This document shows, one piece after another, positions 9,050-36,335 of a stretch of DNA of 41,228 nt. Position 1 is the first letter of the stretch; the number at the start of each line of letters is the position of its first letter. The notes beneath the pieces are model-generated. The model was not told the DNA's origin and made no database searches. It saw nothing but the letters and a program-made list of their open reading frames with translations. A program made the translations under genes and the position numbers. The stretch lies in the NCBI GenBank assembly GCA_946545475.1, contig CAMNNO010000004.1, forward strand, positions 1 to 41,228, in the 5' to 3' direction. This DNA is from an uncultured Blautia sp. (lineage in GTDB: Bacteria; Bacillota; Clostridia; Lachnospirales; Lachnospiraceae).

Positions 9050-9108
9050 AACAGATTCTTTTCGAACAGATTCTTTTTGAACAGATTCTTTTTGAACAGA
9101 TTCTTTTC
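9050..9108 (+). repeat. 15-bp tandem array upstream of the pseudo-rhomboid gene
   Basis: There are four units of AACAGATTCTTTTyG at 9050, 9065, 9080 and 9095, nearly identical. The array is flanked by GCGGACA (9042-9048) and TGTCCGC (9110-9116), an inverted repeat that would place the whole array in a hairpin loop. It ends 25 bp before the start codon. Confidence 0.85.
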
Positions 9109-12039: not shown

Positions 12040-12053
12040 TGACATGCGCACAT

Positions 12054-12120
12054 GATGGCTTTTTTTATAAGTGATGGCTTTTTTTATAAGTGATGGCTTT
12101 TTTTATAAGTGATGGTTTTT
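12054..12120 (+). repeat. 19-bp tandem array upstream of pyk
   Basis: There are three perfect head-to-tail units of GATGGCTTTTTTTATAAGT at 12054, 12073 and 12092. A diverged partial fourth at 12111 runs into the AAAGGAGG ribosome-binding site. Each full unit carries a TATAAG resembling a -10 element and a seven-T run. Confidence 0.9.
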
Positions 12121-12141
12121 TTTAAAGGAGGAAACACAGCC

Positions 12142-13560: not shown

Positions 13561-13638
13561 AAACATCGGATAGAAACATCGGATAGAAACATCGGATAGA
13601 AACATCGGATAGAAACATCGGATAGAAACATCAGAAAG
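13561..13638 (+). repeat. 13-bp tandem array between pyk and the next gene
   Basis: There are five perfect units of AAACATCGGATAG at 13561, 13574, 13587, 13600 and 13613, plus a sixth altered unit (AAACATCAGAAAG) ending 16 bp before ATG 13655. The array begins directly after the pyk stop codon. The altered last unit supplies purine-rich sequence that may serve as the ribosome-binding region. Confidence 0.92.
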
Positions 13639-13654
13639 AAGTGAGAGATAAGCT

Positions 13655-21227: not shown

Positions 21228-23048
21228 ATGAAGAATATAAAATGGCATTTGGAAAACATCGGATACCGGCTCCTTTTGGAGGATGACCCTGCCGTCCAGT
21301 ACGCCTTCGGCAAGGCCAGGGAGCTGCCCGGATATGAGGGGACTTACCTCCACAAGGCTTTTCTCCTTTTAAAACTCTATATGGGCATTCATATACGCAA
21401 AATGACTCCTGAAAGAGCCCTGGAAGATCTGGAAGGCCACAGCGCCTTCCCTGAATGGCGCGCGGCGGACCAGGAAAAGGTGCTCTCCCTGTGCCGCAGC
21501 CTGGCCGGCAGCCCGTCTCTTGCCGTGGATGCCGCCCTGCTGCTGTGGCCTCCCGCGAGAGACAGGGAGAAAGACCGCTTTCTTTTGGAAGCGCGCCCAA
21601 AGGCCGCTCCCGTTTATGTCGAAAACACAGGACTTTTGTCCTTTCTGACCCAAGGCGGCCGCAGGCTTCCCGTATATGTCGTCATGAACGGCTTCGGGGA
21701 GGATGTCCCGGCATCTTTTCTCCAAAACCGTTCACGCTTTCGGCCTGTCCTTTTAGGGGAAGCCGGAAGCGTCCGGGATTTTTTTACCGGGGATGAGATA
21801 TCCCTCCCCTCCGGAAAAGAGGGGACCGGCATTCTTTCAGTCAAAGACCGGCTGCCCCTCTTCCAGGCAGCCGGCTTTTCCGCCTGTTACGTGTATCCGG
21901 ACATCCGGGCCCTGGGAAGACGTTACCGCTCTTCCATTTACGAAACACCGGTCCTGGACCTTTACCATACGCTGATGGACAGCGCCTTCCATATGCCCTC
22001 CCCGTCCCGCGGCTTTTTTTATGGCATGGGGTTCAAGTATGGCGGGATCCTGTGCCTCGGCTTCTGCCAGTGGCTTAAGGCGCTCTGCCAAAAGGAAAAG
22101 TTCGACCGCATCCTCTTTTGCGCCAGGGACTGCCGCCTTGTCTACGAGACGAGCCTCGTCCTTTCCTTCCCCTGCGATATCCGCTATATGCAGGTTTCCC
22201 GCCGGGCCATGGGGGAGGTCTTTTTTGAGGAGGAGCCGGAGCAGTATGTGGATGGCTTTCTTCTCCACCGGGCCGCTAACCGCTCGATCCCCTGCCGGAT
22301 AGAGGATGTGCTCCGGGATATGGAGCTCTCATTTTTAGCCCCCCACCTTCCTGACTATGGGCTGCAGCTTTCCGGCTATCTGACCGCAGATGCCTGTGAA
22401 AGCCTGAAAAGGCTGATCCTTGACCACTATTCGGCGGTGGCCGGGCATTTTAAAAACAGCCGGGAAGCCGGACAGGACTATTACCGCTCCCTTCTTTCCG
22501 GCGCGGAAAGGATATGCGTCGTGGATATCGGCTGGCACGGCACCGCCTCCCGGGCTCTGCGCCGCTTTGCCGCAAGGGAAGGCCTCCCGGTGACGATAGC
22601 GTGCGCCCTTTTCGGGGCCGTGCAGGGGGAAAAAACGGAAACCTATGATAACGCTCTGCACGCCCATACCTACCTGTTTTCCGATGACAAGAGGCGGTGC
22701 GATGCCTTCTACGGCAGGCCCTTAAGCGTCCGGCAGATCTTCTGCTTTGAAAAGATGTTCACGGATACCTGCCCTTCCCTTTTGCATTACTATCCCTCCT
22801 TTGTCCTTAAGGACAAAAATCCGTATGCTCCGGCAATTGCCGGCATCCACAGGGGCGTGTCGGACTTTGTCGCGCAGATGCAGCCGCTCCTCCTTGCCAT
22901 GGGCCAGACGATCCGGATGGAAGAAGCCTGGGATGTGTTTTCCCACTTTTTAAATGACAAAAAGCTCCTGAATCTGTTTTATCAGAAGCTCCTGAAAGGA
23001 GAAGGGGATGCCATTGCCCCCGATGAAAAAACGCATGATCAGATATAA
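21228..23048 (+). CDS. polysaccharide-operon protein sharing a domain with the downstream glycosyltransferase-HAD fusion
   Basis: This 606-residue protein has no assigned family name. Its C-terminal half resembles the C-terminal region of the 1018-residue protein at 27248-30304. Here it reads ILFCARDCRLVYETSL (around residue 298), then MQVSRRA and CVVDIGWHGTASRALRRF (around 433); there it reads VFFCARDGYLPKMAYDLY, IQASRKA and CFDMGYSGRIQDAL. The N-terminal half has no glycosyltransferase or HAD motif. No membrane segment is evident. The gene overlaps the permease gene by 41 bp, showing co-expression. A role in making or modifying the exported polysaccharide is inferred from context. The start ATG 21228 has a weak AGGA site upstream. 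Confidence 0.75.
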   Translation: MKNIKWHLENIGYRLLLEDDPAVQYAFGKARELPGYEGTYLHKAFLLLKLYMGIHIRKMTPERALEDLEGHSAFPEWRAADQEKVLSLCRSLAGSPSLAVDAALLLWPPARDREKDRFLLEARPKAAPVYVENTGLLSFLTQGGRRLPVYVVMNGFGEDVPASFLQNRSRFRPVLLGEAGSVRDFFTGDEISLPSGKEGTGILSVKDRLPLFQAAGFSACYVYPDIRALGRRYRSSIYETPVLDLYHTLMDSAFHMPSPSRGFFYGMGFKYGGILCLGFCQWLKALCQKEKFDRILFCARDCRLVYETSLVLSFPCDIRYMQVSRRAMGEVFFEEEPEQYVDGFLLHRAANRSIPCRIEDVLRDMELSFLAPHLPDYGLQLSGYLTADACESLKRLILDHYSAVAGHFKNSREAGQDYYRSLLSGAERICVVDIGWHGTASRALRRFAAREGLPVTIACALFGAVQGEKTETYDNALHAHTYLFSDDKRRCDAFYGRPLSVRQIFCFEKMFTDTCPSLLHYYPSFVLKDKNPYAPAIAGIHRGVSDFVAQMQPLLLAMGQTIRMEEAWDVFSHFLNDKKLLNLFYQKLLKGEGDAIAPDEKTHDQI

Positions 23049-23838
23049 AAAAGAAAAAACCGAAAACAGGCATACCATCCGCCTTCTTATCTCGCTGGCC
23101 CGTAACGACCTTCGCGCCCGATATTCCAGCTCGGTCCTGGGGGCTTTGTGGGCCTTTGTCATGCCGCTGGTCACGATACTGGTCTTCTGGTATGTGTTCC
23201 AGCTCGGCTTTAAAAATCTTCCCGTGGGAGATGCCCCCTATATTCTGTGGTTCAGCACCGCCTATATCCCCTGGGTCTTTTTCAGCGACGCCGTGTCCTC
23301 CGGGTCCTCCTCCCTGCTGGAGTACAGCTACCTGGTCAAAAAAATACGGTTTGATGTCCGCATCATTCCGGCGATCAAGGTGATATCCGCCCTGTTCGTC
23401 CATCTGTTTTTTGTCGCTTTTCTTTTCGCCATGGCCTTTCTGTACCGTTATCCTCTGGGAAGAAGCGCTTTCCAGGTTTTATACTACATGGCCTGCGCCG
23501 GCCTTCACGCCCTGGCTCTTAGCTACCTGCTGTCCGCCTTTACCGTCTTTTTCAAGGATACCTCCTCCATACTGTCCGTGATCTTGCAGGTCGGCTTCTG
23601 GGCAACCCCCATCCTCTGGAATGAGGAGCAGATGGTGAACGGCTCCGTCCAGAAGATTTTGCGCCTTAACCCCATGCACTATGTGATACAGGGGTACCGG
23701 GACAGCCTGCTTTTCGGGAAGAGCCTGTCCGCGCGCGGAGGAGAGGGCCTGTATTTCTGGGTCGTCACCCTGGTCCTTCTTCTGGCCGGCTTCATTGTCT
23801 TTAAGCGGCTCAGCCCCTTCTTTGCCGATGAGGTTTAA
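23008..23838 (+). CDS. ABC-2-type polysaccharide export permease (Wzm/TagG-like)
   Basis: This 276-residue integral membrane protein has about six hydrophobic helices. It begins with a cytoplasmic amphipathic segment typical of the family (LLISLARNDLRARYSSSVLGALWAFVMPLVT), and LNPMHYVIQGYRDSLLFG near the C-terminus is another family hallmark. With the adjacent ATPase it should move a lipid-linked polysaccharide across the cytoplasmic membrane. The start ATG 23008 has AGGAG 6 nt upstream and overlaps the end of the previous gene. The ATPase gene follows 46 bp later. Confidence 0.93.
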   Translation: MPLPPMKKRMIRYKKEKTENRHTIRLLISLARNDLRARYSSSVLGALWAFVMPLVTILVFWYVFQLGFKNLPVGDAPYILWFSTAYIPWVFFSDAVSSGSSSLLEYSYLVKKIRFDVRIIPAIKVISALFVHLFFVAFLFAMAFLYRYPLGRSAFQVLYYMACAGLHALALSYLLSAFTVFFKDTSSILSVILQVGFWATPILWNEEQMVNGSVQKILRLNPMHYVIQGYRDSLLFGKSLSARGGEGLYFWVVTLVLLLAGFIVFKRLSPFFADEV

Positions 23839-23884
23839 CGCTGTGTTTTTTACGAATATATGATTCTGTTTGAGAGGTAATGGC

Positions 23885-25162
23885 ATGGAAAATGTCATCG
23901 ACGTTAACAATCTCCGCAAGGTCTATCCCCTTTATGAAAAGAAATCCGATAAGGTGAGGGAGGCCTTTTCTTTCAGCGGAAAGAAATTCCACAAAGATTT
24001 CGAGGCCCTTAAGGGCATCAGCTTTTCGGTGGCGAAGGGCGAATGCGTGGGGATCATCGGCCTTAACGGTTCGGGAAAATCCACGCTCCTTAAGATCCTG
24101 TCCGGCGTTATCCGCCAGTCCTCCGGGGAGGCGCTTGTCCGGGGAAAGACGGCGGCTCTCCTGGAGCTGGGCGCCGGCTTTAACCCGGAATATTCCGGGA
24201 TGGAAAACATCTACTTAAATACCCTCCTCATGGGCTTTACCCGGGAAGAGACCGATGCGGCCCTGCCGGAGATACTCGCCTTCGCGGATATCGGCGACTT
24301 TATCTACCAGCCGGTCAAGATCTATTCCTCCGGGATGTTCGTCCGCCTGGCCTTCGCCATCGCGGTATCCGTAAATCCCGATATCCTGCTCATCGACGAA
24401 GCCCTCAGCGTGGGGGATGTCTTTTTCCAGCAGAAATGCTACGCCAAGATACGCGAGTTCCGGGAAAAGTCCACCGTCCTCATCGTTTCGCATGACCTGA
24501 ACGCCATTACCCGCTTCTGTCCCCGGGTGCTTCTTATGAACCGGGGAGAACTCCTGTTTGACGGGAATGCCCTGGATGGCGTGGCGCAGTATTATAAGGT
24601 GCGGCAGGGCGATATGGGCTTTGCCCCATCGGAGGAAGAGGAAAAAGCCGCGTCCCTTTCCGATGCCGATCTTGGAGGGCTGCCGTTTCGCGCTCCCGAT
24701 CCGGATAAATACAGCGGCAAGGGCGATATGTCCATTGACAGCTTTTACTATGATGTCGACGGCGACCCCTTTGCCGGATATATCGAGAAGGGCTGTCAGG
24801 TAACGGTCCACCTCCTGGTGTCCTCCCATATCCAGGCGGATAACCTGATCGTCGGCTATCAGGTGCTGGACCGCTATGGCAATGAGGTCTTTGGGGAGAC
24901 TTCCCTGACATGCCACATGACCGACAGGACGATCGATACCGGAAAAAGCCGGATCTCCCTTCGCTTTACCTGGCCGGAGGTCCGGGAGGGCGATTACTTC
25001 ATTACCCTTGGCCTTGGCGTCGGCTACGAGGTGCTGCGCCAGGTCGAAGAGTGCTGGATCAACCAGGCCATCCACTTTGTCAATACGACCCACGGAAAAG
25101 TGATCTATGGGCTGTTCAACAATCCCATGGATGATTTCTGCATTGCCGGTTTACCGACCTGA
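23885..25162 (+). CDS. polysaccharide export ABC ATPase with C-terminal Wzt-type domain
   Basis: This 425-residue Wzt/TagH-like ATPase energises the neighbouring permease. The nucleotide-binding domain spans residues 1-250: Walker A GLNGSGKST (59-67), the signature YSSGMFVRLAFA, Walker B DILLIDEALSVGD, and the switch SHDLNAI. After a linker, residues about 280-425 form a beta-rich domain (DMSIDSFYYDVDGDPF, VTVHLLVSSHIQADNLIVGYQVLD, ISLRFTWPEVREGDYFITLGLG) like the Wzt C-terminal carbohydrate-binding domain, which in E. coli O9a recognises the capped chain end. Its presence suggests export is coupled to a chain-end modification. The start is ATG 23885 with GAGAGG 7 nt upstream. The methyltransferase/coiled-coil gene follows after 24 bp. 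Confidence 0.94.
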   Translation: MENVIDVNNLRKVYPLYEKKSDKVREAFSFSGKKFHKDFEALKGISFSVAKGECVGIIGLNGSGKSTLLKILSGVIRQSSGEALVRGKTAALLELGAGFNPEYSGMENIYLNTLLMGFTREETDAALPEILAFADIGDFIYQPVKIYSSGMFVRLAFAIAVSVNPDILLIDEALSVGDVFFQQKCYAKIREFREKSTVLIVSHDLNAITRFCPRVLLMNRGELLFDGNALDGVAQYYKVRQGDMGFAPSEEEEKAASLSDADLGGLPFRAPDPDKYSGKGDMSIDSFYYDVDGDPFAGYIEKGCQVTVHLLVSSHIQADNLIVGYQVLDRYGNEVFGETSLTCHMTDRTIDTGKSRISLRFTWPEVREGDYFITLGLGVGYEVLRQVEECWINQAIHFVNTTHGKVIYGLFNNPMDDFCIAGLPT

Positions 25163-25186
25163 TCTGCCGAAATCTGGAGAGATAGA

Positions 25187-27229
25187 ATGGAAAACAGCTG
25201 GAAATATCATCAATGTCATTTTGCCTGCGATGACTATCAGCCGGTTTTGATGAGATACGCGCCATGGGCCGGGCTGCGCGCCTTTGCCTATGACCTTATG
25301 GTCTTTCTTAAACCGCAAACCCTGGCTGAGCTTGGCAGCCATTATGGATGCTCGGCTTTTGCCTTCATGCAGGCGATCAAGGACAACCGCCTTCCCACCC
25401 GCTTTTTTGCCATCGACACCTGGGAGGGCGATGCCTACACAAAGGGCGACTACCGCGAGGACGTGTACAGTTCCTTTATGAAGACCCTCAAGGGGGCTTA
25501 CGGCGATGTCTCCTGCCAGGTGATGCGGACCACCTTTGATGAGGCGCTTAGCGCCTTCGCCGATGGAAGCCTGGATATGCTGCATATTGACGGCTCCCAC
25601 ATCTATGAGGATGTCCGCCACGATTACCTGTCCTGGAAGGACAAGGTATCCGATAACGGGCTTATCCTGTTTCACGACATCGGCCTTGACCCGTTCCAGG
25701 GGAAGCCCATGGGCTCCCATGTCCTGTGGCAGGAGATCTGCCGGGAAACGCCCTGCACCCTGGAGATCCCCTTTAGCTGCGGACTCGGGCTTCTTTTTAA
25801 GTCCCGCGAAACGTATGAAAAGGTCAGAGACGCCTTCGATATCCAGCCTTACCTCAATGCCCTTTATGTGGCGGATTCGGAGACAAAAGCCAGGGTGAGA
25901 GAGGATGCCTTCGCCCTGCGCGACCTCAGGACATACCAGAAAGACCTCCTCTCCCGGATCGGGGCCCTTGAGGGCGAGATCGCCCGCTACAAAGAGACTA
26001 TCGATGGAAAGGACAGCTATATTAAGGAGCTGGAAGGCAACATAGCAAAAATGGACGCTTTCGTCCGCCAAAAAGAAGCCTACATCTCCGAGCTTCTTTC
26101 CCAGGCGGAAGAAAATAGGGCTTTTCTGAAAGAGAAGGAAGATTACATACAGGAGCTTCTTTCCCAGGCGGAAGAAAATAGGGCTTTTCTGAAAGAGAAA
26201 GAAGATTATATACAGGAGCTTCTTTCCCAGGCGGAAGAGAAAGAAGCTTATATATCCCGGCTGGAAAAGGACCATGGCACTTTACAGGCCTACGCCGAAG
26301 AGAAAGAGGCGCGCGTCGGGGAACTGGAAAGAGACTTTAAGACTCTGCAGAAGTACACATCTGAAAAAGAAGACTATATAAAGACCCTGGAGGCGGACCA
26401 CAAGGCCCTGCAGGAGTACGTCTCCGAAAAGGAAGCCTATATAAAGACTCTGGAGGCGGACCACAAAACCCTGCAGGAGTACGTCTCCGAAAAGGAAGCC
26501 TATATAAAGACCCTGGAAGCGGACCACAAAACCCTGCAGGAGTATACCTCCGAAAAGGAAGCCTATATAGGGACCCTGGAAGCGGACCACAAAACCCTGC
26601 AGGAGTACACCTCCGAAAAGGAGGCCTATATAAAGACCCTGGAAGCGGACCACAAAACCCTGCAGAAGTACACCTCCGAAAAGGAAGCCTATATAGGGAC
26701 CCTGGAAACGGACCACAAAACCCTGCAGAAGTATGCTTCCGAAAAAGAAGACTATATAAAGAAGCTCGAAGGCGATCTGGCTTCCCTGAAAGATTTTGTC
26801 TCGGAAAAGGAAGGCCGTATGGCCTCTCTTGAAAAGGAGATTTCTTCCCTGAAAGCCTTTATCTCAGAAAAAGCCGGATACATTTCCCGGCTGGAAGAGG
26901 AGGCGGCTTCCCAGAAGGCGCTTGCTGCGGATAAGGACGGCCGCATCGGCCGGCTGGAAGAGGAGATAGAGGGCCTTAAGACCACCCAGACGGAAAAAGA
27001 GGACAGGATCGCCTGCCTCGAGAAGGACCTTCGCCTCTCCCGGCAGGAGGCAGACGCCCTCTCGGCCTCCATCTCCGAATTGCGTCAAACGCAAAACGAA
27101 TTGGAAAACAGCCTGTCAGACATTGAAAAAAAATACCGTTTGCTATATGATAGCATAGAGAGCCGCTTTTTGGGAAAGCGTTACCTTGCCTCGCTGGCCA
27201 AAAAGGGACTGTTAGAGGAATTACTATAG
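25187..27229 (+). CDS. SAM methyltransferase fused to a long 21-residue-repeat coiled coil; candidate chain terminator/ruler
   Basis: This is a 680-residue protein. Residues 1-225 are a class I methyltransferase of the CmcI/Methyltransf_24 type: AELGSHYGCSAFAF (47-60, SAM-binding loop), FFAIDTWEGD, and LDMLHIDGSHIYEDVRHD followed by LILFHDIG. Residues about 245-650 are a continuous coiled coil of some 16 units of 21 residues (three heptads). Each centres on EKEAYIKTLEADHKTLQ-like sequence, and the six most uniform span residues 393-518. The C-terminal 30 residues are basic/hydrophobic. In E. coli O9a/O8, WbdD caps the glycan and its coiled coil sets chain length, and Wzt reads the cap. The same neighbours are here, but no WbdD-type kinase domain is. 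Ruler function is inferred. Confidence 0.9.
   Translation: MENSWKYHQCHFACDDYQPVLMRYAPWAGLRAFAYDLMVFLKPQTLAELGSHYGCSAFAFMQAIKDNRLPTRFFAIDTWEGDAYTKGDYREDVYSSFMKTLKGAYGDVSCQVMRTTFDEALSAFADGSLDMLHIDGSHIYEDVRHDYLSWKDKVSDNGLILFHDIGLDPFQGKPMGSHVLWQEICRETPCTLEIPFSCGLGLLFKSRETYEKVRDAFDIQPYLNALYVADSETKARVREDAFALRDLRTYQKDLLSRIGALEGEIARYKETIDGKDSYIKELEGNIAKMDAFVRQKEAYISELLSQAEENRAFLKEKEDYIQELLSQAEENRAFLKEKEDYIQELLSQAEEKEAYISRLEKDHGTLQAYAEEKEARVGELERDFKTLQKYTSEKEDYIKTLEADHKALQEYVSEKEAYIKTLEADHKTLQEYVSEKEAYIKTLEADHKTLQEYTSEKEAYIGTLEADHKTLQEYTSEKEAYIKTLEADHKTLQKYTSEKEAYIGTLETDHKTLQKYASEKEDYIKKLEGDLASLKDFVSEKEGRMASLEKEISSLKAFISEKAGYISRLEEEAASQKALAADKDGRIGRLEEEIEGLKTTQTEKEDRIACLEKDLRLSRQEADALSASISELRQTQNELENSLSDIEKKYRLLYDSIESRFLGKRYLASLAKKGLLEELL
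26090..26238 (+). repeat. 63-bp in-frame direct repeats in the coiled coil
   Basis: Copies at 26090-26152 and 26153-26215 differ at only two bases, both synonymous, and a third partial copy runs to 26238. They encode ELLSQAEENRAFLKEKEDYIQ-type units, with one unit shortened to two heptads after the array. Confidence 0.9.
26363..26740 (+). repeat. six tandem 63-bp units in the coiled coil
   Basis: Six consecutive 63-bp units encode near-identical 21-residue segments of the form EKEAYI(K/G)TLEADHKTLQ(E/K)Y. DNA identity between units is high (for example GCGGACCACAAAACCCTGCA recurs), which implies recent duplication or gene conversion. The unit length preserves both reading frame and heptad register. 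Confidence 0.92.
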
Positions 27230-27247: not shown

Positions 27248-30200
27248 ATGGAAAATCTCAAAATATCAGTCATCGTGCCGGTTTATAACACCGAAGGATA
27301 CCTTGCGCGCTGCCTTGGCAGCCTGCTGTCCCAAAGCTTCCGGAATCTTGAGATCATCGTGGTCAATGATGGCTCAAAGGGCAACATCCGCGACATCATA
27401 AAGCCCTACCAGGCCAGCGACAGCCGGGTCCTTTTTGTCGACGGCGACACTAACCAGGGACTTTTCCGGGCACGGCTTGCCGGAGCGAAAAAAAGTACGG
27501 GGGATTATATCTGCTTTGTCGACAGCGATGACTACGTATCCTACGACTTTTACCGGAGCCTTCTTGACCGCGCATCAGAGACCGGCGCGGACATATGTAT
27601 CGGCGATACGGTCTGGGAGGATGGCTCCGAGCGCTACATCTACAACTTTCATGAGAGTGCGCTCTCTTTTGATACCCTTTCCGGCGATGAGGTGAGGGAG
27701 ACTTACTTTGGACAGGAAGCCGCCTGCTACTCCTGGCACACGGTCTGGAACAAGCTCTACCGCCGCTCCCTGTGGGAAGAATGCCTGCCCTTTTACCAGA
27801 AGCTTACGGAGCACATCGTCATGACGGAAGACATCGCCTTTTCCTCCGTCCTTTTTTATAAAGCCAAAAAAGTCGCCCGCGTCTGTGGGGATGCCTACTT
27901 TTACTGCATGAACAAAAACGCTTCCACCGACGCCAGCCGTCCCACAAGGGAACGCTTTATCAAAAATATCCATGACCTTAAGGCCGTCTTTGCCTTTGTC
28001 CAGGACTTCCTTAAGGAGCAGAAGGCTTCGGAGGACATCTGCGCCCACTTTGCCCATGCGAAGGACCATTACGGCCGGATGTGGCAGCATCTCCTTGACG
28101 ATTCCTTTAAGGGGGAGGATAAGGCCGCCTGCCAGCAGGCCATGGACGGCTTCTGGAAGGGAAGCCTTCCCGACATCCTGCCGGACTATTACTTTGAACA
28201 GGTCCGCACCTCCTGGAACGGCGGCCTTCCCTATTTAAAGGAGCAGGTCGGCCATTTTGAGGGCGCTTATATATCCTTTGATATTTTCGACACCCTCCTT
28301 CTCCGCCCGTTCTACCGCCCGGAGGACCTGTTCCTTATGCTGGATAAGGTCTTTCAGGACATATCGGGCACCAATGTCCTGTTTTCCAAAATGCGAAAGG
28401 AAGGCGAAACGCTTGCCCGCCGCTTTTACGCGAAAACAGACAGCAGCATAAAGGACATTACCCTGACGGAGATATATGGCTATATCCAAAAAGCCTATGG
28501 CCTGTCCCCGGAACTGGCACAGAAGATGAAGGAGGCGGAATGCCGCCTGGAGATCGGCTTTGTGCGGCCCAGGAGGGCCGGCCTGTCTCTTTTTAACCTG
28601 GCCAGGTATCAGAAAAAGCATGTCCTTCTCGTGACGGATATGTACCTGGAACGCGAAACCATCGTCTCGATGCTGGAAAAATGCGGCATATCCGGCTATG
28701 ACCGCCTGTTCATTTCCTGTGAGGAGCGGCGCCTTAAGTATGACGGCGGCCTGTTCCGGGCGGTCACAGAAAAAGTCCCGGTAAAGCCGCAGGAGATCCT
28801 GCACATTGGCGATACCTGGAATTCGGATATCCTGGGCTGCCAGAAGGCGGGGATCAAGAGCCTTTTCCTGCCGAAGGCCCGCGAGATTTTTGAAAACCGT
28901 ATCCAGGGAAGCCCCACCAACCGCTGCAGCACGATCGGAAAGGACATATGCGGCCGGGCAAGGTCCTATGACAAGGCCTCCTCCTCCCTGGTGTTCGGCA
29001 TCGGCCAGGCGCTTTCCTTTAACCGCTATTTTGACAACCCCTACCGCAGTTTTAACAGCACCAGCGACTTTAACTGCGATCCCTTTTTTATCGGCTATTC
29101 CCTTTTGGGTCCCCATATCCTCGGCCTGGTCCGCTGGATAGATGAGGAGGCCCGACGCAGCGGCCGGTCGCGCGTCTTTTTTTGCGCGAGGGATGGGTAT
29201 CTTCCCAAAATGGCCTATGATCTCTATGCCAGATATATCCAAAAGCCGCTATCCACCGGCTACATCCAGGCTTCCCGGAAAGCCCTTTTGCCGGCCATCC
29301 TCCGCTGGCCTCTTTCCTTTTACCAGCTTCCGGCCGAATACCGGGGGCATTCCCCGAAAAGCCTGATGGCCATGCTGTCGTTTGCCGGAAAGGACATAAG
29401 CGAGGCGGCTGCTGCCCGGCTGTTTGGCCGGGAAGGGCTCCCCTACGACAAAACCTTTGAGGATGCCGCGGACTACCACCGCTTTATCGCGCTCTATTTA
29501 GACAACTTTTATTCCGAAAAAAAACACAGGGAAGCCATCGGCCTGCTAAAGGAGTATTACAGCCAGGTCGGGGAGGATGCCCTTTGCTTTGACATGGGCT
29601 ACAGCGGCCGCATCCAGGATGCCCTCAGCTTCTGCTGCGGCAGGGGGGTCGAGGTTTTGTATATCCATGAGGATATCGACAGCTCCTCCCACTTAAAGCA
29701 CCTGATGCAGTTCCCGATCCGGGATTTTTATGACGCAAGGCCTGCCGTCACCGGCCTTATCCGGGAGCATATTTTTTCCGATCCGCTCGGAAGCTGTACC
29801 GGCTTTGTCCGGAAGGACGGCCATGTGGTCCCTGTTCTGGAGGAGAGCGATAAAAACGCCTTTGACTGCCATGTGGTCGGCCTCATGCACAGGGGAGCGC
29901 TTTCTTTTCTTAAGGATTACCTGGACGCCTTCGGTCCGTATGAGGGCCGGCTCTATGCCTCCCGCGAGGAGCTTTCCTATCCGTTTGAGGGCTTCCTCCG
30001 GACGCTTTCGGACACCGACAGGCAGATCTTCCGGGGCGCTTTCTTTGAGGATACCGTTTACGGGGGCCTGAGCGCCATCCCGGTGGAAGAGTTTATCTCA
30101 CGCCAGAACTTCCTTCTCGAAAAGGAGCAGGCTGCGGATGAGGGAGACAAAGCGGCCCAGGAGCCTTCCGCGCCTTCCTACAGCCGGGATTATCTGACCG

Positions 30201-30304
30201 AGCTTTTAAATACCAAGAGCAAGCCCGTTCGGGCCATGCTCCTGCTGCTCATAGACAGAAAGCTGTTCATGCAGAAGCTCAAAAAGAATCTGGGCCTGTC
30301 GTGA
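27248..30304 (+). CDS. glycosyltransferase family 2 - HAD hydrolase - unknown domain fusion
   Basis: This is a 1018-residue cytoplasmic protein with three parts. Residues 1-300 form a GT-A glycosyltransferase of family 2 (ISVIVPVYNTEGYLARCLGSL, IVVNDGS, and the metal-binding FVDSDDY around Asp92). Residues about 335-570 are a HAD-superfamily domain: motif I is SFDIFDTLLLRP (Asp345/Asp348), motif II is LLVTDMYLE, and motif IV is LHIGDTWNSDILG (around Asp522). Residues about 610-880 resemble the C-terminal half of the first gene of this operon (FFCARDGYLPKMAYDLY, CFDMGYSGRIQDAL). It starts 18 bp after the methyltransferase gene. It probably adds a sugar and handles a phosphorylated intermediate, but acceptor and donor are unknown. 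It is the only glycosyltransferase recognised in the window. Confidence 0.88.
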   Translation: MENLKISVIVPVYNTEGYLARCLGSLLSQSFRNLEIIVVNDGSKGNIRDIIKPYQASDSRVLFVDGDTNQGLFRARLAGAKKSTGDYICFVDSDDYVSYDFYRSLLDRASETGADICIGDTVWEDGSERYIYNFHESALSFDTLSGDEVRETYFGQEAACYSWHTVWNKLYRRSLWEECLPFYQKLTEHIVMTEDIAFSSVLFYKAKKVARVCGDAYFYCMNKNASTDASRPTRERFIKNIHDLKAVFAFVQDFLKEQKASEDICAHFAHAKDHYGRMWQHLLDDSFKGEDKAACQQAMDGFWKGSLPDILPDYYFEQVRTSWNGGLPYLKEQVGHFEGAYISFDIFDTLLLRPFYRPEDLFLMLDKVFQDISGTNVLFSKMRKEGETLARRFYAKTDSSIKDITLTEIYGYIQKAYGLSPELAQKMKEAECRLEIGFVRPRRAGLSLFNLARYQKKHVLLVTDMYLERETIVSMLEKCGISGYDRLFISCEERRLKYDGGLFRAVTEKVPVKPQEILHIGDTWNSDILGCQKAGIKSLFLPKAREIFENRIQGSPTNRCSTIGKDICGRARSYDKASSSLVFGIGQALSFNRYFDNPYRSFNSTSDFNCDPFFIGYSLLGPHILGLVRWIDEEARRSGRSRVFFCARDGYLPKMAYDLYARYIQKPLSTGYIQASRKALLPAILRWPLSFYQLPAEYRGHSPKSLMAMLSFAGKDISEAAAARLFGREGLPYDKTFEDAADYHRFIALYLDNFYSEKKHREAIGLLKEYYSQVGEDALCFDMGYSGRIQDALSFCCGRGVEVLYIHEDIDSSSHLKHLMQFPIRDFYDARPAVTGLIREHIFSDPLGSCTGFVRKDGHVVPVLEESDKNAFDCHVVGLMHRGALSFLKDYLDAFGPYEGRLYASREELSYPFEGFLRTLSDTDRQIFRGAFFEDTVYGGLSAIPVEEFISRQNFLLEKEQAADEGDKAAQEPSAPSYSRDYLTELLNTKSKPVRAMLLLLIDRKLFMQKLKKNLGLS

Positions 30305-30344: not shown

Positions 30345-32789
30345 ATGAAGCCCTTTGCCAAGATCTGTTACAAATGTTTAAAAAAGAAACCATCCCAGGA
30401 CGGGCCTTGTCCTTACTGTGGATATGATAATGACAAATACGCGCCCCGGGAATATTTTCTGCCGCCTTTTTTTCTTCTCAAGAACAATTATCTGCTGGGA
30501 AAGGCTTTAGGAACGGGCGGCTTCGGCATTACCTATGTCGCCCTGGATATCAAGCTCCAGCGCCTGGTGGCCGTCAAGGAGCTTTATATCCGTTCGATCT
30601 GCAAAAGAGATAAGGAAGAAGCCCTGGTCCGCGTGGAGCCGGGACGCGAGGACAGCTTCGGCCATGTCCGCAGCCGGTTCCTGGACGAGGCCAGGATGAT
30701 CGCCATGCTGAACGCCAGGAATCCGGACGCCGCCATTGTCAAGGTTTTCGACTACTTCACGGAAAACAGCACGGCCTATATGGTCATGGAATACTTAAGC
30801 GGGGAGAACCTTCGCACCAGGGTCCGGCATCAGGGCCCTATCCCCTACCGGAAGCTCATCCCGCTCCTTCGGCCCGCCGCGATGGCTGTCTCGTGCATCC
30901 ATGCCTGCCATGTGGTCCACAAGGACATCAGCCCGGACAACATCATGGTCCTGCCGGACGGAACCGTTCGCCTTCTGGACTTCGGGGCTGCCCAGAGCCT
31001 TGACGGCTCCTTCCGCCCTCCCGTGGCGACCTACAAAAAAGGCTATGCCCCGCCCGAGCAGTATCCCGGAGAGGGGAACGAGCATATCGGGACCTGGTCG
31101 GATGTCTATGCGTTCTGCGCCACCATCTGCTTTTGCCTGACCGGCGAAAAGCCGCCGGAATCGGTGACCCGCCAGGAAAAAGACACCCTCAAGATCCCCA
31201 TGAAGGCCTTTGGCCCTATGGGGAAAAGAGCAAAGGAAGCCCTGCTCCAGGGCCTTAAGCTGGACTACAGAAAAAGGACGCCTTCCATCAAAGCGTTCTG
31301 GAAGGAATTTGAAAGGGGGAGGCGTATGCTGCCGTTTTTTGCACCCTTTGGCGGCGTGGCCGTTCTGGCCGCCGCCTCTATGCTCTACCTGTCGCCGCTC
31401 CGCCCGCTCCCCGGCATTCCGGATATCGCGCCGGCCCGGACGGACAGCCCCCGGGCCAGCTACGGCCATTCCGGAGAGCTATCCGCCGGGGACAGTTACG
31501 GAGGCAAAGATAAGGCCGCCGGTGACCGAATCATCGTTTCCGGAGGCCTCTCCCGGGTCAGCACGCCCTCGCCATCGCCGGAGGCTCCTATAGAGGACCC
31601 GGAAGCTCAGGCTCCTACAGAAGAGTCAAAGGCGCAGCCTCTGACAAAAGAACCGGAAGGTCAGTCTCTTACAGAAGAGCCGGAGGCACCGGCCGTGACA
31701 GAAGAGAGCCCCCCGCCTCCCGCCTCGCCCACGCCCGTCCCGCCCGAAAAGCAGACCGGGCGGATACCCGTGACGGCCGGGAGCCTTCCCTATGCCCTGA
31801 ATACGGAGATCCCCGTGACGGCGGGCACCTATATTTTCGAAAACGCGGCGGAGAGGAGCCTGATCCTCGGCGTAAACGGCGGTTTTCCCGACAACGGCAC
31901 CTCCCTCATGCTGCGGTCCTACAAATACGAAAACAGCAACCGTTTCTTTGTCATCCCCACGGACGATGGCGGCACGGTTTTCAACATCCGGGCCGCCCAC
32001 ACCAACAGCCCGGTCATGGTTAAGGATAACGGCGGCATCGGATCGCTCGTCGTCCAGGATAACGTCCTCTCCGCGGGCACATCCGCCGACTGGTCCTTTA
32101 TCTACTGCGGGGAAGATAAGGACCGTCCCGGCCAGAGCGTCGTCATCATAAAAAATAAAAACGGCTATGTTCTCGCCCCGGAAGGCGGAAAGGTCGCGGC
32201 CGGCTCCCGCATGGTCCTCACCCTCCTGAACCTGGGCGATTCCGCCCAGAAATGGTCTCTGCGCTGGAACGAGAGGGACGAGTCGCAGAAGACCATGGTC
32301 GTTTTCGGCGAAGGGCAGGAGGTCACGAACCTTTCCGGTTCCTTCAAGATCATATCCGGCAGGGACGCCCACATGGCCATGGCCGCCTCCAGCGATCCCA
32401 ATGCTGCCGAGCAGCAGCTGATCACCTGGGAGGCCGTGACTGATATCAGCCAGATCTTTATCTTTGAGCCGGCCTCCCTGGAAGGGGACGGCAATTATTA
32501 CTATAAGATCCGCCCGGCCAGGGATGAGACCGCCAAGAAGGAGTACCTGGAATATGACCCCGGCAGCCAGAGGGTTTTTCTGAGGCCCGAGAACTCCTCG
32601 CCGAACCAGCTCTTCCGCGTGATTTATGACAGGTTCAACCGATTCATCATCCGCTCTTATGACGGCACCAGCCTTGGGCTGGATGCCCGGGAGGACGGGA
32701 CAAGTGAGGGCGTCGCCATAAAATCGCGCTATATGGATGCCTACGAAGACAAGGATGTTGTGCTCTGGTATCTCCGCGAAGCCGGGTAA
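30345..32789 (+). CDS. transmembrane Ser/Thr protein kinase with zinc ribbon and ricin-type ectodomains
   Basis: This is an 814-residue receptor-like kinase. The N-terminal zinc ribbon has Cys8, Cys11, Cys22 and Cys25 (CYKC and CPYC). The kinase domain runs from about residue 48 to 320: P-loop GTGGFG (56-61), Lys78 in VAVKEL, catalytic HKDISPDN (Asp194, Asn199; Lys replaces the usual HRD Arg), DFGAA (212-216) and APPEQ. One membrane segment lies at about 333-351. A Pro/Glu/Thr-rich stalk with five 9-residue repeats follows (414-458). The outer part (about 475-814) contains ricin-type beta-trefoil-like repeats such as GTYIFENAAERSLILGVNGG and FNIRAAHTNSPVMVKDN, suggesting glycan binding. A PP2C phosphatase follows 54 bp later. 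It may sense the surface polysaccharide made by the preceding operon; that part is inference. Confidence 0.9.
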   Translation: MKPFAKICYKCLKKKPSQDGPCPYCGYDNDKYAPREYFLPPFFLLKNNYLLGKALGTGGFGITYVALDIKLQRLVAVKELYIRSICKRDKEEALVRVEPGREDSFGHVRSRFLDEARMIAMLNARNPDAAIVKVFDYFTENSTAYMVMEYLSGENLRTRVRHQGPIPYRKLIPLLRPAAMAVSCIHACHVVHKDISPDNIMVLPDGTVRLLDFGAAQSLDGSFRPPVATYKKGYAPPEQYPGEGNEHIGTWSDVYAFCATICFCLTGEKPPESVTRQEKDTLKIPMKAFGPMGKRAKEALLQGLKLDYRKRTPSIKAFWKEFERGRRMLPFFAPFGGVAVLAAASMLYLSPLRPLPGIPDIAPARTDSPRASYGHSGELSAGDSYGGKDKAAGDRIIVSGGLSRVSTPSPSPEAPIEDPEAQAPTEESKAQPLTKEPEGQSLTEEPEAPAVTEESPPPPASPTPVPPEKQTGRIPVTAGSLPYALNTEIPVTAGTYIFENAAERSLILGVNGGFPDNGTSLMLRSYKYENSNRFFVIPTDDGGTVFNIRAAHTNSPVMVKDNGGIGSLVVQDNVLSAGTSADWSFIYCGEDKDRPGQSVVIIKNKNGYVLAPEGGKVAAGSRMVLTLLNLGDSAQKWSLRWNERDESQKTMVVFGEGQEVTNLSGSFKIISGRDAHMAMAASSDPNAAEQQLITWEAVTDISQIFIFEPASLEGDGNYYYKIRPARDETAKKEYLEYDPGSQRVFLRPENSSPNQLFRVIYDRFNRFIIRSYDGTSLGLDAREDGTSEGVAIKSRYMDAYEDKDVVLWYLREAG
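31584..31718 (+). repeat. 27-bp imperfect repeats in the kinase stalk
   Basis: Five units of nine residues: APIEDPEAQ, APTEESKAQ, PLTKEPEGQ, SLTEEPEAP and AVTEESPPP. They form an extended, charged stalk between membrane helix and ectodomain. Confidence 0.75.
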
Positions 32790-32843
32790 GGAGCTTCACC
32801 GTCAGTTCGCGCTGGCCTATAATAAAGAGAAGAGGACAAGGGA

Positions 32844-33776
32844 ATGCGCTATATTGAGTCGTATCATACAGACATCGGAACCCGGCGGAAGTCCAACCAG
32901 GACAGCCTGGCTCTTTTAAAAGCCCGGACGCAGGATGGCGAGATCCTCCTGGCGGTGATGTGCGATGGCATGGGCGGGCACGCCAAGGGAGAGCTGGCCA
33001 GCAAGACCGCTGTCATGGCCTTCCGCCAGTGGTTTTATGAGCGGCTTCCGCTCTGCCTTAAGGCAGGCATCGATGCCTCGCTCATCCATGAGGAATTTAC
33101 CGTGCTGGGGAAACAGATCAACCGCGCCCTGGTGGATTACGGCGCAAAGAACGCCTCCGAGCTCGGGACCACCCTGACGGCCTTTTTATTCTATAAAGAC
33201 AGCTTTTTCGCCGGCCATGTGGGCGATTCCCGCGGATATGAGATCAGCGATAACGTCTACCAGATCACCCGCGACCACAGCCTGGTCGCCCAGGGCCTTT
33301 CCCAGGGCATGCTGACATACGAGGAAGCCCGCCTTGACCCCAGAAAAAATATCCTCCTGGAAACGGTGGGCGTCACCGAGGAGCTGAACATGGATTTCAT
33401 TTTCGGCACGGTCAAGCCGCTAACGGCCTACTGCCTATGCTCGGACGGGTTCTGGCACCACTTATCCGAGGCGGAGCTAAAGAGCTACCTGTCCGCGCCA
33501 TCGCCCGCCGCCCCGGAAGAATTTTCCCTGCGCCTTCGCTTCCTGACGGAAATGGTCAAGAGACGCGGCGAGACGGACAATATCTCGTCCATCCTGGTCA
33601 TGGCAGAAGAGCACAGCCCCGCCGCTAAGGCTCCGGATAACGATCGTGATAAAGATCCCTGGGAGGAAGACCCGGACGATGAAGATGCCACTCAGCCCAT
33701 CTTTTTGACGCCGTCGCCGGTTCCCTTTGACATCCTGCTGGATCTTGTGGAAGTCCATACGCAGGAAAGCATATAA
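32844..33776 (+). CDS. PP2C-family protein serine/threonine phosphatase
   Basis: This 310-residue cytoplasmic phosphatase is dependent on Mn/Mg. All PP2C motifs are present: RRKSNQDSL (Asp20), VMCDGMGGHAKGE (Asp41-Gly42), ELGTTLTAFLF, FAGHVGDSRGYEI, ITRDHSLV, LCSDGFWHHL and RGETDNISSILV. The catalytic domain ends near residue 255. The remaining acidic tail (DPWEEDPDDEDATQPIF) has no known function. It pairs with the receptor kinase immediately upstream and should reverse its phosphorylations, as in other Gram-positive kinase/phosphatase pairs. The start ATG 32844 has a purine-rich AGAGGACAAGGGA site. Confidence 0.95.
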   Translation: MRYIESYHTDIGTRRKSNQDSLALLKARTQDGEILLAVMCDGMGGHAKGELASKTAVMAFRQWFYERLPLCLKAGIDASLIHEEFTVLGKQINRALVDYGAKNASELGTTLTAFLFYKDSFFAGHVGDSRGYEISDNVYQITRDHSLVAQGLSQGMLTYEEARLDPRKNILLETVGVTEELNMDFIFGTVKPLTAYCLCSDGFWHHLSEAELKSYLSAPSPAAPEEFSLRLRFLTEMVKRRGETDNISSILVMAEEHSPAAKAPDNDRDKDPWEEDPDDEDATQPIFLTPSPVPFDILLDLVEVHTQESI

Positions 33777-33899: not shown

Positions 33900-36335
33900 A
33901 TGAAGGCTTTAAAAAAATTTCTTTCTATATTTAAAATCCTGCCGATAGCCCTTTGCCTGCTGCTGATCGCGGCGGCCGCCAACCGCGTCGCCGTCCCCTG
34001 GTATCAGGACAGGCTGGGGGCGGACATGCTCCTGACCGTCACGGCCACGGCCAAAAACCAGGATGACGCCCTCTCAAACAATGTCCGCCTGCGGAGCGTC
34101 GTCGTCAATGGGCAGGCCATAAATCTTGGACAGGTTCCCCTTACCGGAGCCTGGCAATATGAGGGAGCCGGAGATTTTCTCTATGCCTACGACCTGGAAG
34201 GGCCCTCCTCTCTCGATATTCCGCTGGAACAGGTGAGGACCCTTTCCCTGACCTTTGTCAGCGAGAGGGGGTCCGGCATAGTCACGGCATCCCTTGACGG
34301 AAAAACTTTTATAGATACCGATCTTTACAGCGATGAGGACTGGAAGCTGGTTTCCTTTGACAGAAACCTCTACCCCGTCACCGACGCGGAGAGCAGCCTT
34401 GACATGGTCAAGATCGCCGGGGCAGCCGCGCTTGTTCTCGCTATCCTTCTCTACATCCTGGCCAGGCGCAGGGAAACGCGCAGCGATATGCTAAAGAGCA
34501 GCCTCATCCACCTTCTGCATATGGCTCTCGCCCTCCTGATCGTCGTCTCGTGTTACCTGATCCAGTATCAGACCTTTGATGTGATATTATCCCGCCTGAA
34601 AAGTGACCACATGACCCTTGTCCGCGTCCTGATCCTGGTCTGGCTGATCCTGGAAACGCTTTACTTCCTGCTCCGCCGGACATACCTGGCCTATTTTATC
34701 ACGGCCGGCGTGCTGGAATTTATGACCGCGGCCAGCTATGTGAAAACGATCCTGCGGGAGTCGCCCCTTCTGCCCTGGGATTTCAAGCTGATCCGGGAGG
34801 CCTCCTCCGTCGTCAACGGCTATTCCCTGGAAATTCCCAGAATGACCATCCTTATCCTGGCGAGCGTCGTCGTCATGACGGTCCTTTTATTCCTGTTAAG
34901 ATGGCGGCCGGTCTTCCGATTTTTGCCTTTCCTTCTGACCTTTGTTCCCACGGGCCTTGTGCTGGTCATCTACGTCTACAGCTCGTTCATTCAGGGGCCA
35001 TACGTTCCGGAAGAGGCTTACCGGTCCTATCTTCCCAAAGATTATTATGAGGAGAGAGGCTTCCTCACCGCCTTCACCGAATACCTGTACTACCTGCTCC
35101 CCCAGGAAGCCCCGGAGGGCTATAGCAAGGAATATATGCAGGCCATGGCCGATAAGGCCAGGAACGCCGTCACCGAGGTGACAATAGCCAATGTCTCCTC
35201 TAAGGCGGCAGCGGAAAAGCCCAACATCATCGTGGTCATGAGTGAATCCTACTTTGACCTGACGCGGCAGCTTAAGCATATCACGTTTCAGGAGGACCCC
35301 CTGCCCGTCCTCCACGCGCTCACCCGGGAAAGCCTGTATGGCACGGCTTTTTCCCATGTTTTCGGCGGGAACACAGTCGTCAGCGAATTTGAATGCCTGA
35401 CCGGTTTCTCCGGGGAATTTTTCCCGATGGACTACATGGTTTACGGCAGCTTTATCACCGAAGGCTTCGATTCGGCGGTGAGCATCCTGGAAGCCCAGGG
35501 CTACCACTCCATGGCCTTCCATCCTTACCTGGCCAGCAATTACAACCGTGACCACGCCTATAAATCCTTTGGCTTCAACGAGCTGTTTTTCGAGGAAAGC
35601 TTCCCGGAGGATGCCAAGAGGGCCAGGGGCCTGATCTCGGACGAGGCTCTTTATGACCTCATGGAAGAGAAGTATGAAAACTGGCGCCAAACGTCCGACG
35701 AGCCGCTGTTTGCCTTTGCGGTAACGATGCAGAACCACGGCGGATACTGGGCGGATTCGATCTATCCGGAGGGCGAGGTAGCCATGGAATCGGATGCCTA
35801 CTCCGATACGACCTGGGGCAGCATCAAGGATTATGTCTACGGCCTTCACGAATCGGACAGGGCCTTTGGCGAGTTTGTCGACTATTTCCGCAATGTGCCG
35901 GAGGATACCATTATCGTCTACTTCGGCGACCACATGAGCGATGCCGGCTCCAAGGCCGACAAGATGTTCGGGCAGGAAGAATGGGCGAACGGCGATGCCA
36001 TCACCTATGATTTTAACGCCCATCAGGTGCCTTTTGTGATCTGGAGCAATTTTGACAACACCAGCCGCAATGTCGGCCTGATCGGGATCAGCCAGATCCT
36101 GCCGACGGCCTTCGATTATTACGGGCTGCAAAAACCGGCGTTCTGGGATTTCCTTATTGACATGTACACCGTTTACAGGGCTTCCGACAGCATCATGGTC
36201 GTTGATCCCCGCGGGAATTTTTACTCCCTTCCCGATATGCCCGGGGACATTAAGACCTGGTATGACACCTATAAGGCTTTCCAGTATGACTATATCTGGG
36301 GGAAGCGCTACGCTTCGGATATCTTTAAAATTTAA
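33900..36335 (+). CDS. LTA-synthase-family phosphoglycerol transferase (sulfatase fold)
   Basis: This is an 811-residue membrane enzyme. One N-terminal helix (about 13-28) is followed by an extracytoplasmic domain of about 140 residues, then four or more helices between 168 and 370, and a C-terminal catalytic domain with the alkaline-phosphatase/sulfatase fold. The catalytic domain shows NIIVVMSESYFDL (metal ligand Glu449), GGNTVVSEFECLTG (nucleophile Thr492) and VYFGDHMSD (Asp677/His678). LtaS-type enzymes polymerise or transfer glycerol phosphate from phosphatidylglycerol on the outer face. The domain between the first and second helices is not usual in LtaS and may bind substrate. Transfer of glycerol phosphate onto the exported polysaccharide is possible from context. 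AAGGAG lies about 8 nt before ATG 33900. Confidence 0.9.
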   Translation: MKALKKFLSIFKILPIALCLLLIAAAANRVAVPWYQDRLGADMLLTVTATAKNQDDALSNNVRLRSVVVNGQAINLGQVPLTGAWQYEGAGDFLYAYDLEGPSSLDIPLEQVRTLSLTFVSERGSGIVTASLDGKTFIDTDLYSDEDWKLVSFDRNLYPVTDAESSLDMVKIAGAAALVLAILLYILARRRETRSDMLKSSLIHLLHMALALLIVVSCYLIQYQTFDVILSRLKSDHMTLVRVLILVWLILETLYFLLRRTYLAYFITAGVLEFMTAASYVKTILRESPLLPWDFKLIREASSVVNGYSLEIPRMTILILASVVVMTVLLFLLRWRPVFRFLPFLLTFVPTGLVLVIYVYSSFIQGPYVPEEAYRSYLPKDYYEERGFLTAFTEYLYYLLPQEAPEGYSKEYMQAMADKARNAVTEVTIANVSSKAAAEKPNIIVVMSESYFDLTRQLKHITFQEDPLPVLHALTRESLYGTAFSHVFGGNTVVSEFECLTGFSGEFFPMDYMVYGSFITEGFDSAVSILEAQGYHSMAFHPYLASNYNRDHAYKSFGFNELFFEESFPEDAKRARGLISDEALYDLMEEKYENWRQTSDEPLFAFAVTMQNHGGYWADSIYPEGEVAMESDAYSDTTWGSIKDYVYGLHESDRAFGEFVDYFRNVPEDTIIVYFGDHMSDAGSKADKMFGQEEWANGDAITYDFNAHQVPFVIWSNFDNTSRNVGLIGISQILPTAFDYYGLQKPAFWDFLIDMYTVYRASDSIMVVDPRGNFYSLPDMPGDIKTWYDTYKAFQYDYIWGKRYASDIFKI

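What the first reader, a model, noticed from the sequence alone, without database searches (positions are those of the whole stretch)
23008..27229. WbdD-like terminator/ruler arrangement beside a Wzm/Wzt exporter in a Gram-positive-type genome
The sequence shows, in order, an ABC-2 permease, an ATPase with a C-terminal Wzt-type domain, and a methyltransferase joined to about 400 residues of coiled coil. Established: in E. coli O9a/O8, WbdD caps the glycan, its coiled coil measures chain length, and the Wzt C-domain recognises the cap before export. Inference: this operon may cap and measure a surface polysaccharide the same way, but with a methyltransferase only (no kinase) and a cytoplasmic ruler made of uniform three-heptad units.
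Basis: partly seen in the sequence, partly recalled or inferred. Interest (0 to 1): 0.85.

Follow-up and report, generated by a model that had tools for sequence, protein, structure and literature searches.

The report
Methyl-cap writer, ruler and exporter

Summary
Wzm, Wzt with a C-terminal cap-reader-type domain, and a methyltransferase with a 458-residue tail lie in order; 399 tail residues run as nineteen 21-residue units in one register. Of 41 loci found by methyltransferase homology, 39 have this Wzt just upstream. Searching with the Wzt C-domain alone gave the same 5 of 299 family genomes, each hit beside the methyltransferase, although 176 of 299 carry some Wzt_C domain.

Capping and cap reading are well supported. 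The ruler is plausible but unproven: 14 of 35 intact relatives have tails of only 25-106 residues. 'Methyltransferase only' is not new (E. coli O8, K. pneumoniae O5). New here: Bacillota setting, another methyltransferase family, a rod about three times WbdD's, built of whole-heptad repeats. Verdict: new variant of a known kind.

The parts
21228..23048 (+). 606-aa ORF upstream, overlaps the start of wzm; relatives precede wzm in some related loci; distantly related to the C-terminal part of the GT2-HAD protein
   Evidence: no Pfam/NCBIfam family; homologues before wzm in L026, L034, L038, L044
23008..23838 (+). Wzm, ABC-2 permease, 276 aa (later ATGs at 23023 and 23035 are possible starts)
   Evidence: PF01061 9.1e-16; sequence at 22980-23060
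23870..25162 (+). Wzt, ATPase with C-terminal cap-reader-type domain, 430 aa
   Evidence: PF00005 and PF14524; nearest PDB chains 8dku/7k2t, named A. aeolicus or full-length WzmWzt
24716..25117 (+). Wzt_C domain; Thr379 and Trp396 correspond to Aquifex Thr346 and Trp362 of the methyl-cap pocket
25187..25852 (+). class I SAM methyltransferase domain, aa 1-222
   Evidence: PF13578 3.3e-23; model pLDDT 94.7, cation-dependent O-methyltransferase fold
25928..27124 (+). coiled coil of 19 in-register 21-residue units, aa 248-646
26345..26762 (+). 63-bp tandem repeat at the core of the coil
   Evidence: TRF, 6.6 copies, 90% matches
27161..27226 (+). basic C-terminal end, last 22 aa, net +3 against a tail mean of -1.6
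27248..30304 (+). GT2 glycosyltransferase fused to a HAD-like region, 1018 aa; likely polymerase partner (inferred)
   Evidence: PF00535 5.6e-35, HAD families weak; a relative follows the methyltransferase in 25 of 41 loci

Best explanation
A WbdD-like system for ending, measuring and exporting a lipid-linked surface glycan. The GT2-HAD enzyme (perhaps with others elsewhere in the genome) extends the chain at the membrane. The methyltransferase, held away from the membrane on a parallel coiled coil of about 59 nm, O-methylates the non-reducing end once the chain is long enough to reach it. The Wzt C-domain recognises the methyl cap and Wzm/Wzt exports the capped chain. Shown by computation: gene order and its conservation, domain folds, linkage of this Wzt C-domain type with the methyltransferase, conserved methyl-pocket residues, regular heptad rod. 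Inferred: that the sugar end is the substrate, that the rod limits access, that the GT is the polymerase, that the basic C-terminus sits at the membrane.
Against: 14 of 35 intact relatives have tails of 25-106 residues. Only 19 of 36 tails of 60 residues or more show 3.5-residue periodicity at p<0.01. Among the 22 closest pairs the tail-length difference is zero in 2 and a nonzero multiple of 7 in 3, no more than chance. The C-terminus is basic in 17 of 22 long tails, but its hydrophobic moment is not above that of the coil in most. Leu300 and His350 of the Aquifex pocket are not kept (Q in 25 and L in 5 of 35; G in 35 of 35), and Asn313 is kept in 12 of 35. R-type Wzt_C genes also have a methyltransferase next door (26 of 30), so W against R does not separate methylated from unmethylated glycans. 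Phylum-wide, W-type L125 and L136 have no methyltransferase found in the next two ORFs. No glycan data for this organism were seen.
Confidence: 0.6

Rival explanations
1. Cap and reader as above, but the coil is an oligomerisation and docking scaffold; chain length is set by the polymerase or by competition between elongation and capping.
For: Relatives with tails of 25-106 residues keep the same methyltransferase and Wzt C-domain. In Geobacillus, WsaE caps with 2-O-methyl and acts independently of chain length in vitro (PMC2943079, passages). In WbdD a short helix alone drives trimerisation (PMC3482155, passages).
Against: A scaffold does not obviously need 399 residues of gapless, protein-constrained repeat; Methyltransf_11 and FkbM methyltransferases beside Wzt also carry long coil-like stretches, a recurrence expected of a spacer.
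Confidence: 0.27
2. The methyltransferase modifies internal residues, or each repeat unit, of the glycan; the Wzt C-domain reads a repeat unit, not a terminal cap.
For: Substrate not testable here; methyltransferases of other kinds are common beside Wzt_C exporters (at least 19 of 36 phylum-wide).
Against: The methyl pocket matches a domain shown to bind the non-reducing-end cap; this C-domain type was found only beside this methyltransferase in 299 family genomes.
Confidence: 0.08
3. The exporter carries a teichoic-acid-like polymer and the methyltransferase acts on something else encoded in the same operon.
For: The Wzt ATPase domain scores best among NCBIfam models with a TagH-type model (4e-69, below its cut-off) and matches TarH/TagH structures.
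Against: TagH/TarH hits cover only the ATPase part; the C-domain matches glycan-cap readers, and the pairing with the methyltransferase extends to Paenibacillus and to records titled Sulfurovum and Ahrensia.
Confidence: 0.05

Closest known systems
WbdD of E. coli O9a/O8 and K. pneumoniae O3/O5, with cap-reading Wzt
   Same: N-terminal methyltransferase, long coiled coil, Wzm/Wzt with a C-terminal reader, separate polymerase protein; basic C-terminal end where WbdD has its membrane and docking region
   Different: Methyltransf_24 domain here, no kinase (as in O8); coil about 59 nm against about 20 nm; coil core built of near-identical 63-bp cassettes; Bacillota host
A. aeolicus WzmWzt, 3-O-methyl cap reader
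   Same: C-domain fold; methyl-contacting Trp and Thr kept, Ala replaced by Gly
   Different: Leu300 kept in few, His350 in none, Asn313 in a minority, so the capped sugar is probably different
WsaE of Geobacillus stearothermophilus (2-O-methyl cap, Wzm/Wzt export)
   Same: Bacillota; methyltransferase as terminator next to wzm/wzt; relative L031 has methyltransferase and GT in one protein
   Different: Window has methyltransferase and GT as separate genes and a long coil; according to the review passages WsaE possibly needs an additional length factor
K. pneumoniae O7 ORF6 (methyltransferase-kinase, coiled coil, two GTs)
   Same: Module order as in phylum relative L116 (methyltransferase, coil, GT2, GT1)
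   Different: No kinase or carbohydrate-binding family found in the window protein; GT is a separate gene
C. difficile SLCT-11 S-layer glycan
   Same: Clostridial glycan thought to be capped before ABC export
   Different: Cap is a phosphate-containing group; the word methyltransferase does not occur in the main text

Membership tests
WbdD-type terminator/ruler | N-terminal SAM-dependent methyltransferase | tested here: met
   PF13578 3.3e-23; model pLDDT 94.7, O-methyltransferase fold
WbdD-type terminator/ruler | kinase domain (O9a/O3 form only; absent in O8) | tested here: not met
   no kinase family by Pfam or NCBIfam; residues after 222 are coil
WbdD-type terminator/ruler | extended coiled coil C-terminal to the catalytic domain | tested here: met
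WbdD-type terminator/ruler | C-terminal amphipathic membrane helix and polymerase docking site | tested here: inconclusive
   basic C-terminus in 17 of 22 long tails, amphipathy not above coil background in most; docking not tested
WbdD-type terminator/ruler | common ancestry of the methyltransferase domain with WbdD's | tested here: inconclusive
   profile search of PDB sequences lists no WbdD; fold comparison lists other O-methyltransferases, WbdD not among the rows shown
WbdD-type terminator/ruler | methylates the non-reducing end; coil length sets modal chain length | not testable with these tools
   needs glycan analysis and coil variants
Cap-reading Wzm/Wzt exporter | ABC-2 permease plus ATPase with C-terminal beta-sandwich | tested here: met
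Cap-reading Wzm/Wzt exporter | methyl-cap pocket as in Aquifex (Leu300, Thr346, Ala348, Trp362) | tested here: met
   Thr and Trp in 35 of 35, Gly for Ala in 35 of 35; Leu in 5 of 35: two of four positions identical, one small for small, one changed in most
Cap-reading Wzm/Wzt exporter | binds the capped glycan | not testable with these tools
   needs binding assay
WsaE-type terminator | methyltransferase and glycosyltransferases in one polypeptide | tested here: not met
   separate genes in the window; fused in relative L031

The most novel reading that the evidence does not exclude
Surface glycan length in these gut bacteria is written in DNA as a variable-number tandem repeat: 63-bp cassettes, each a whole number of heptads, lengthen or shorten a cytoplasmic rod that decides where the chain is capped, so strains can tune surface glycan length by repeat gain and loss.
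Probability: 0.25. Interest if true: 0.82.

Novelty: new variant of a known kind. Interest (0 to 1): 0.62.

Why it matters
How Gram-positive-type bacteria end and measure ABC-exported surface glycans is open: for WsaE of Geobacillus, the review passages say that an additional length factor is possibly required (PMC2943079). This module supplies a candidate with a visible ruler and a predicted cap (O-methyl).

Tried and rejected
Single-sequence PDB search with the methyltransferase domain found nothing; the profile gave weak hits, the best to MeT1 (2e-5) and CmcI (0.016). The first genome-contig scan with one sequence found no relative; the second with an alignment gave 41.

Idea tested and dropped: that Trp at the cap-pocket position marks methyltransferase-linked Wzt in general. 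The 30 R-type loci have a methyltransferase of another family next door in 26 cases. Phylum-wide (36 Wzt C-domains in 38 loci) the alignment there is unreliable outside close relatives; some W-type domains (L125, L136) have no methyltransferase found in the next two ORFs while several non-W ones (L127, L130, L131, L133) do. The W/R contrast is claimed only between this family and the 30 best-scoring Lachnospiraceae Wzt_C loci, which are not a random draw.

Idea tested and not confirmed: that the common Lachnospiraceae Wzt_C neighbour (e.g. L100 2448-4640) is a WbdD-like methyltransferase-kinase. A kinase-like motif was noticed by eye (recalled pattern), but Pfam (parts of L065, L067, L068, L076, L100, L104, L105, L108) and a PDB search (L100) show no kinase.

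Idea tested and not confirmed: that tail lengths of close relatives differ by whole heptads. Amphipathic C-terminal helix: mostly not distinguished from the coil. WbdD was not among the listed structural matches of the methyltransferase model; this says nothing either way. Promoter and terminator scan: promoter-like count at chance (6 against 5.2), terminator-like sites (39 against 12.8) mostly inside genes and not interpreted. No joint model of the methyltransferase with the glycosyltransferase was possible (two monomer jobs, both used; the full 680-residue protein was not modelled, only aa 1-268).

Rows dropped: from the 41 loci, seven without a complete Wzt ORF (L019, L024, L025, L028, L029, L042, L045) were left out of the 35-sequence C-domain set (34 loci plus window). 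For intact tails (36 = window and 35 relatives) L047, L049 and L054 (cut by contig ends), L026 (run of N) and L031, L045 (fused) were left out. L026, L047 and trimmed L031 and L045 were among the 36 tails, where L026 counts against the multiple-of-7 result. L024, L025 and L053 come from one strain.
Full report
What is there. The window is contig C4 of genome G000. Reading + strand: a 606-aa ORF of no known family (21228-23048), Wzm (23008-23838), Wzt (23870-25162), a methyltransferase with a long repetitive tail (25187-27229) and a GT2 glycosyltransferase fused to a HAD-like region (27248-30304). The genome belongs to the same genus as G020, whose contig C42 has the length and position of JAFTPT010000053.1, titled Blautia sp. 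RGIG4038.

The tail. After the methyltransferase domain (aa 1-222) come 458 residues without a proline. Hydrophobicity at a 3.5-residue period exceeds all of 2000 shuffles, and the best self-match is at lag 21 (50% identity; 99th percentile of shuffles 14%). Laid out, aa 248-646 form 19 units of 21 residues with no insertion; nine central units match the consensus at 11-21 positions, the ten outer ones at 3-7, and this register has the highest total. The core is a 63-bp DNA repeat, 6.6 copies at 90%. Between 11 units pN/pS is 0.47. At about 0.15 nm per residue (recalled) 399 residues give about 59 nm, against about 20 nm stated for WbdD (PMC5082667, passages). There is no membrane segment or signal-like start.

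Conservation of the module. The methyltransferase domain matches 2 of 64 genomes of the genus and 5 of 299 of the family, the window's own genome included. A profile scan of one genome per species gave 41 loci, mostly titled Lachnospiraceae, Clostridia or Clostridiales, also Clostridium aestuarii, five Paenibacillus, Sulfurovum, Ahrensia and an uncultured Acidimicrobiaceae. In 39 of 41 a Wzt with this C-domain lies upstream on the same strand, with a gap of at most 149 bp except 433 bp in L057, and in 33 Wzm as well; in 6 the contig starts at or inside Wzt; L019 and L045 have neither. A GT2-HAD relative (E below 1e-40 to the C-terminal part) follows in 25 of 41; in others, e.g. L043, L046, L048 and L051, a protein related weakly to that part only follows. 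In L031 methyltransferase and GT2-HAD are one 1312-aa protein.

Reader and writer go together. Because those 41 loci were found through the methyltransferase, I searched a family draw of 299 genomes (same handles as as far as listed) with the Wzt C-domain alone: 7 places in 5 genomes, the same 5, each directly before one of the 7 methyltransferase places. Any Wzt_C domain is found in 176 of 299. So this C-domain type is rare and was not seen in the family without this writer. In a 348-genome draw of the phylum the C-domain profile hit 5 genomes at 1e-10: the window, two whose next gene is a different methyltransferase (Methyltransf_11) with a long coil (L096/L116, L097/L117), and two with a glycosyltransferase next (L098, L099).

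The rod in relatives. Of 36 tails of 60 residues or more, 24 have an internal repeat beyond the 99th percentile of shuffles; the best lag is a multiple of 7 in 19 of 24 (14, 21, 28, 42 or 56; binomial p about 2e-12, relatives not independent). Among 36 intact proteins (window and 35 relatives) the tail ranges from 25 to 458; 14 are under 110. In 17 of 22 long tails the last 22 residues are more basic than 95% of the tail, mean net charge +2.8 against -1.5 over the 22, but their hydrophobic moment mostly does not stand out. Tail lengths of the closest pairs do not differ by multiples of 7 beyond chance.

Wider pattern. In 36 phylum Wzt C-domains (38 loci fetched, two without a usable Wzt), a methyltransferase lies in the next two ORFs in at least 19: 17 by sequence search plus L134 (FkbM) and L139 (Methyltransf_23) by Pfam, which was run on ten neighbours only. 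In 9 of 36 that ORF also has at least 100 residues of coil-like composition (crude rule). Domain order varies: methyltransferase first (L116, L117, L134) or coil-like stretch first (L124, L127, L130, L135).

What is known. WbdD has an N-terminal methyltransferase, a coiled-coil ruler and a C-terminal membrane and polymerase-docking region, and coil length sets chain length (PMC11231755 and PMC5082667, passages; the original 2015 ruler paper is not held). O8 WbdD and K. pneumoniae O5 add methyl only. In Bacillota, WsaE caps with 2-O-methylrhamnose next to Wzm/Wzt, with length control unexplained (PMC2943079, passages). A C. difficile S-layer glycan is thought to be capped by a phosphate group before ABC export (PMC6254364, passages). 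The orthologues of the O7 terminator named in the passage read of PMC11231755 are from alpha- and gammaproteobacteria and cyanobacteria. Searches for a coiled-coil methyltransferase terminator in Gram-positives, Lachnospiraceae or Blautia (listings, some capped) showed no such report in the open-licence library; subscription papers were not covered.

Judgement. Cap writing and cap reading are well supported by independent lines. The ruler is the natural reading of a 399-residue regular rod between writer and C-terminus and agrees with precedent, but short-tailed relatives show that the module does not need it everywhere, and no length data were seen. It works like WbdD with its Wzt; whether its methyltransferase shares descent with WbdD's is not settled.

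Noticed in passing
L065-L094 and L100-L115 (e.g. L100 2448-4640), L121, L123: Common Lachnospiraceae Wzt_C exporters (Arg at the cap-pocket position) lie beside another methyltransferase family in 26 of 30; in L100 a region after it has a kinase-like motif by eye, not confirmed by Pfam or PDB search.
   Followed up: partly
L116 2458-6141 and L117 2469-6101: Methyltransf_11, coiled coil, GT2 and GT1 in one protein of about 1220 aa directly after a W-type Wzt (Pfam run on nearly all of L116, on the first 473 aa of L117), like the K. pneumoniae O7 layout but without a kinase family.
   Followed up: partly
L124, L127, L130, L135 (gene after Wzt): Reverse order: coil-like stretch first, methyltransferase at the C-terminal side, beside a Wzt_C exporter.
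   Followed up: partly
L134 2940-4592: FkbM methyltransferase followed by about 310 residues of coil-like sequence after a Wzt_C gene; runs to the contig end.
   Followed up: no
L047, L049, L054: Contigs end inside or just at the repeat part of the methyltransferase gene, as if assembly broke in the repeats.
   Followed up: no
L019 3421-4359: A lone methyltransferase of this family without Wzm/Wzt found nearby, between other genes in a metagenome bin.
   Followed up: no
window 30345-33776: Serine/threonine kinase with a ricin-type lectin-like C-terminal part, then a PP2C phosphatase, directly after the operon.
   Followed up: no
window 33900-36335: Sulfatase-family protein, 811 aa, distantly like lipoteichoic acid synthase (2.6e-13, far below the NCBIfam cut-off).
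   Followed up: no
window 9050-9108, 12053-12124, 13561-13640: Short tandem repeats of 15, 19 and 13 bp at or between gene ends.
   Followed up: no
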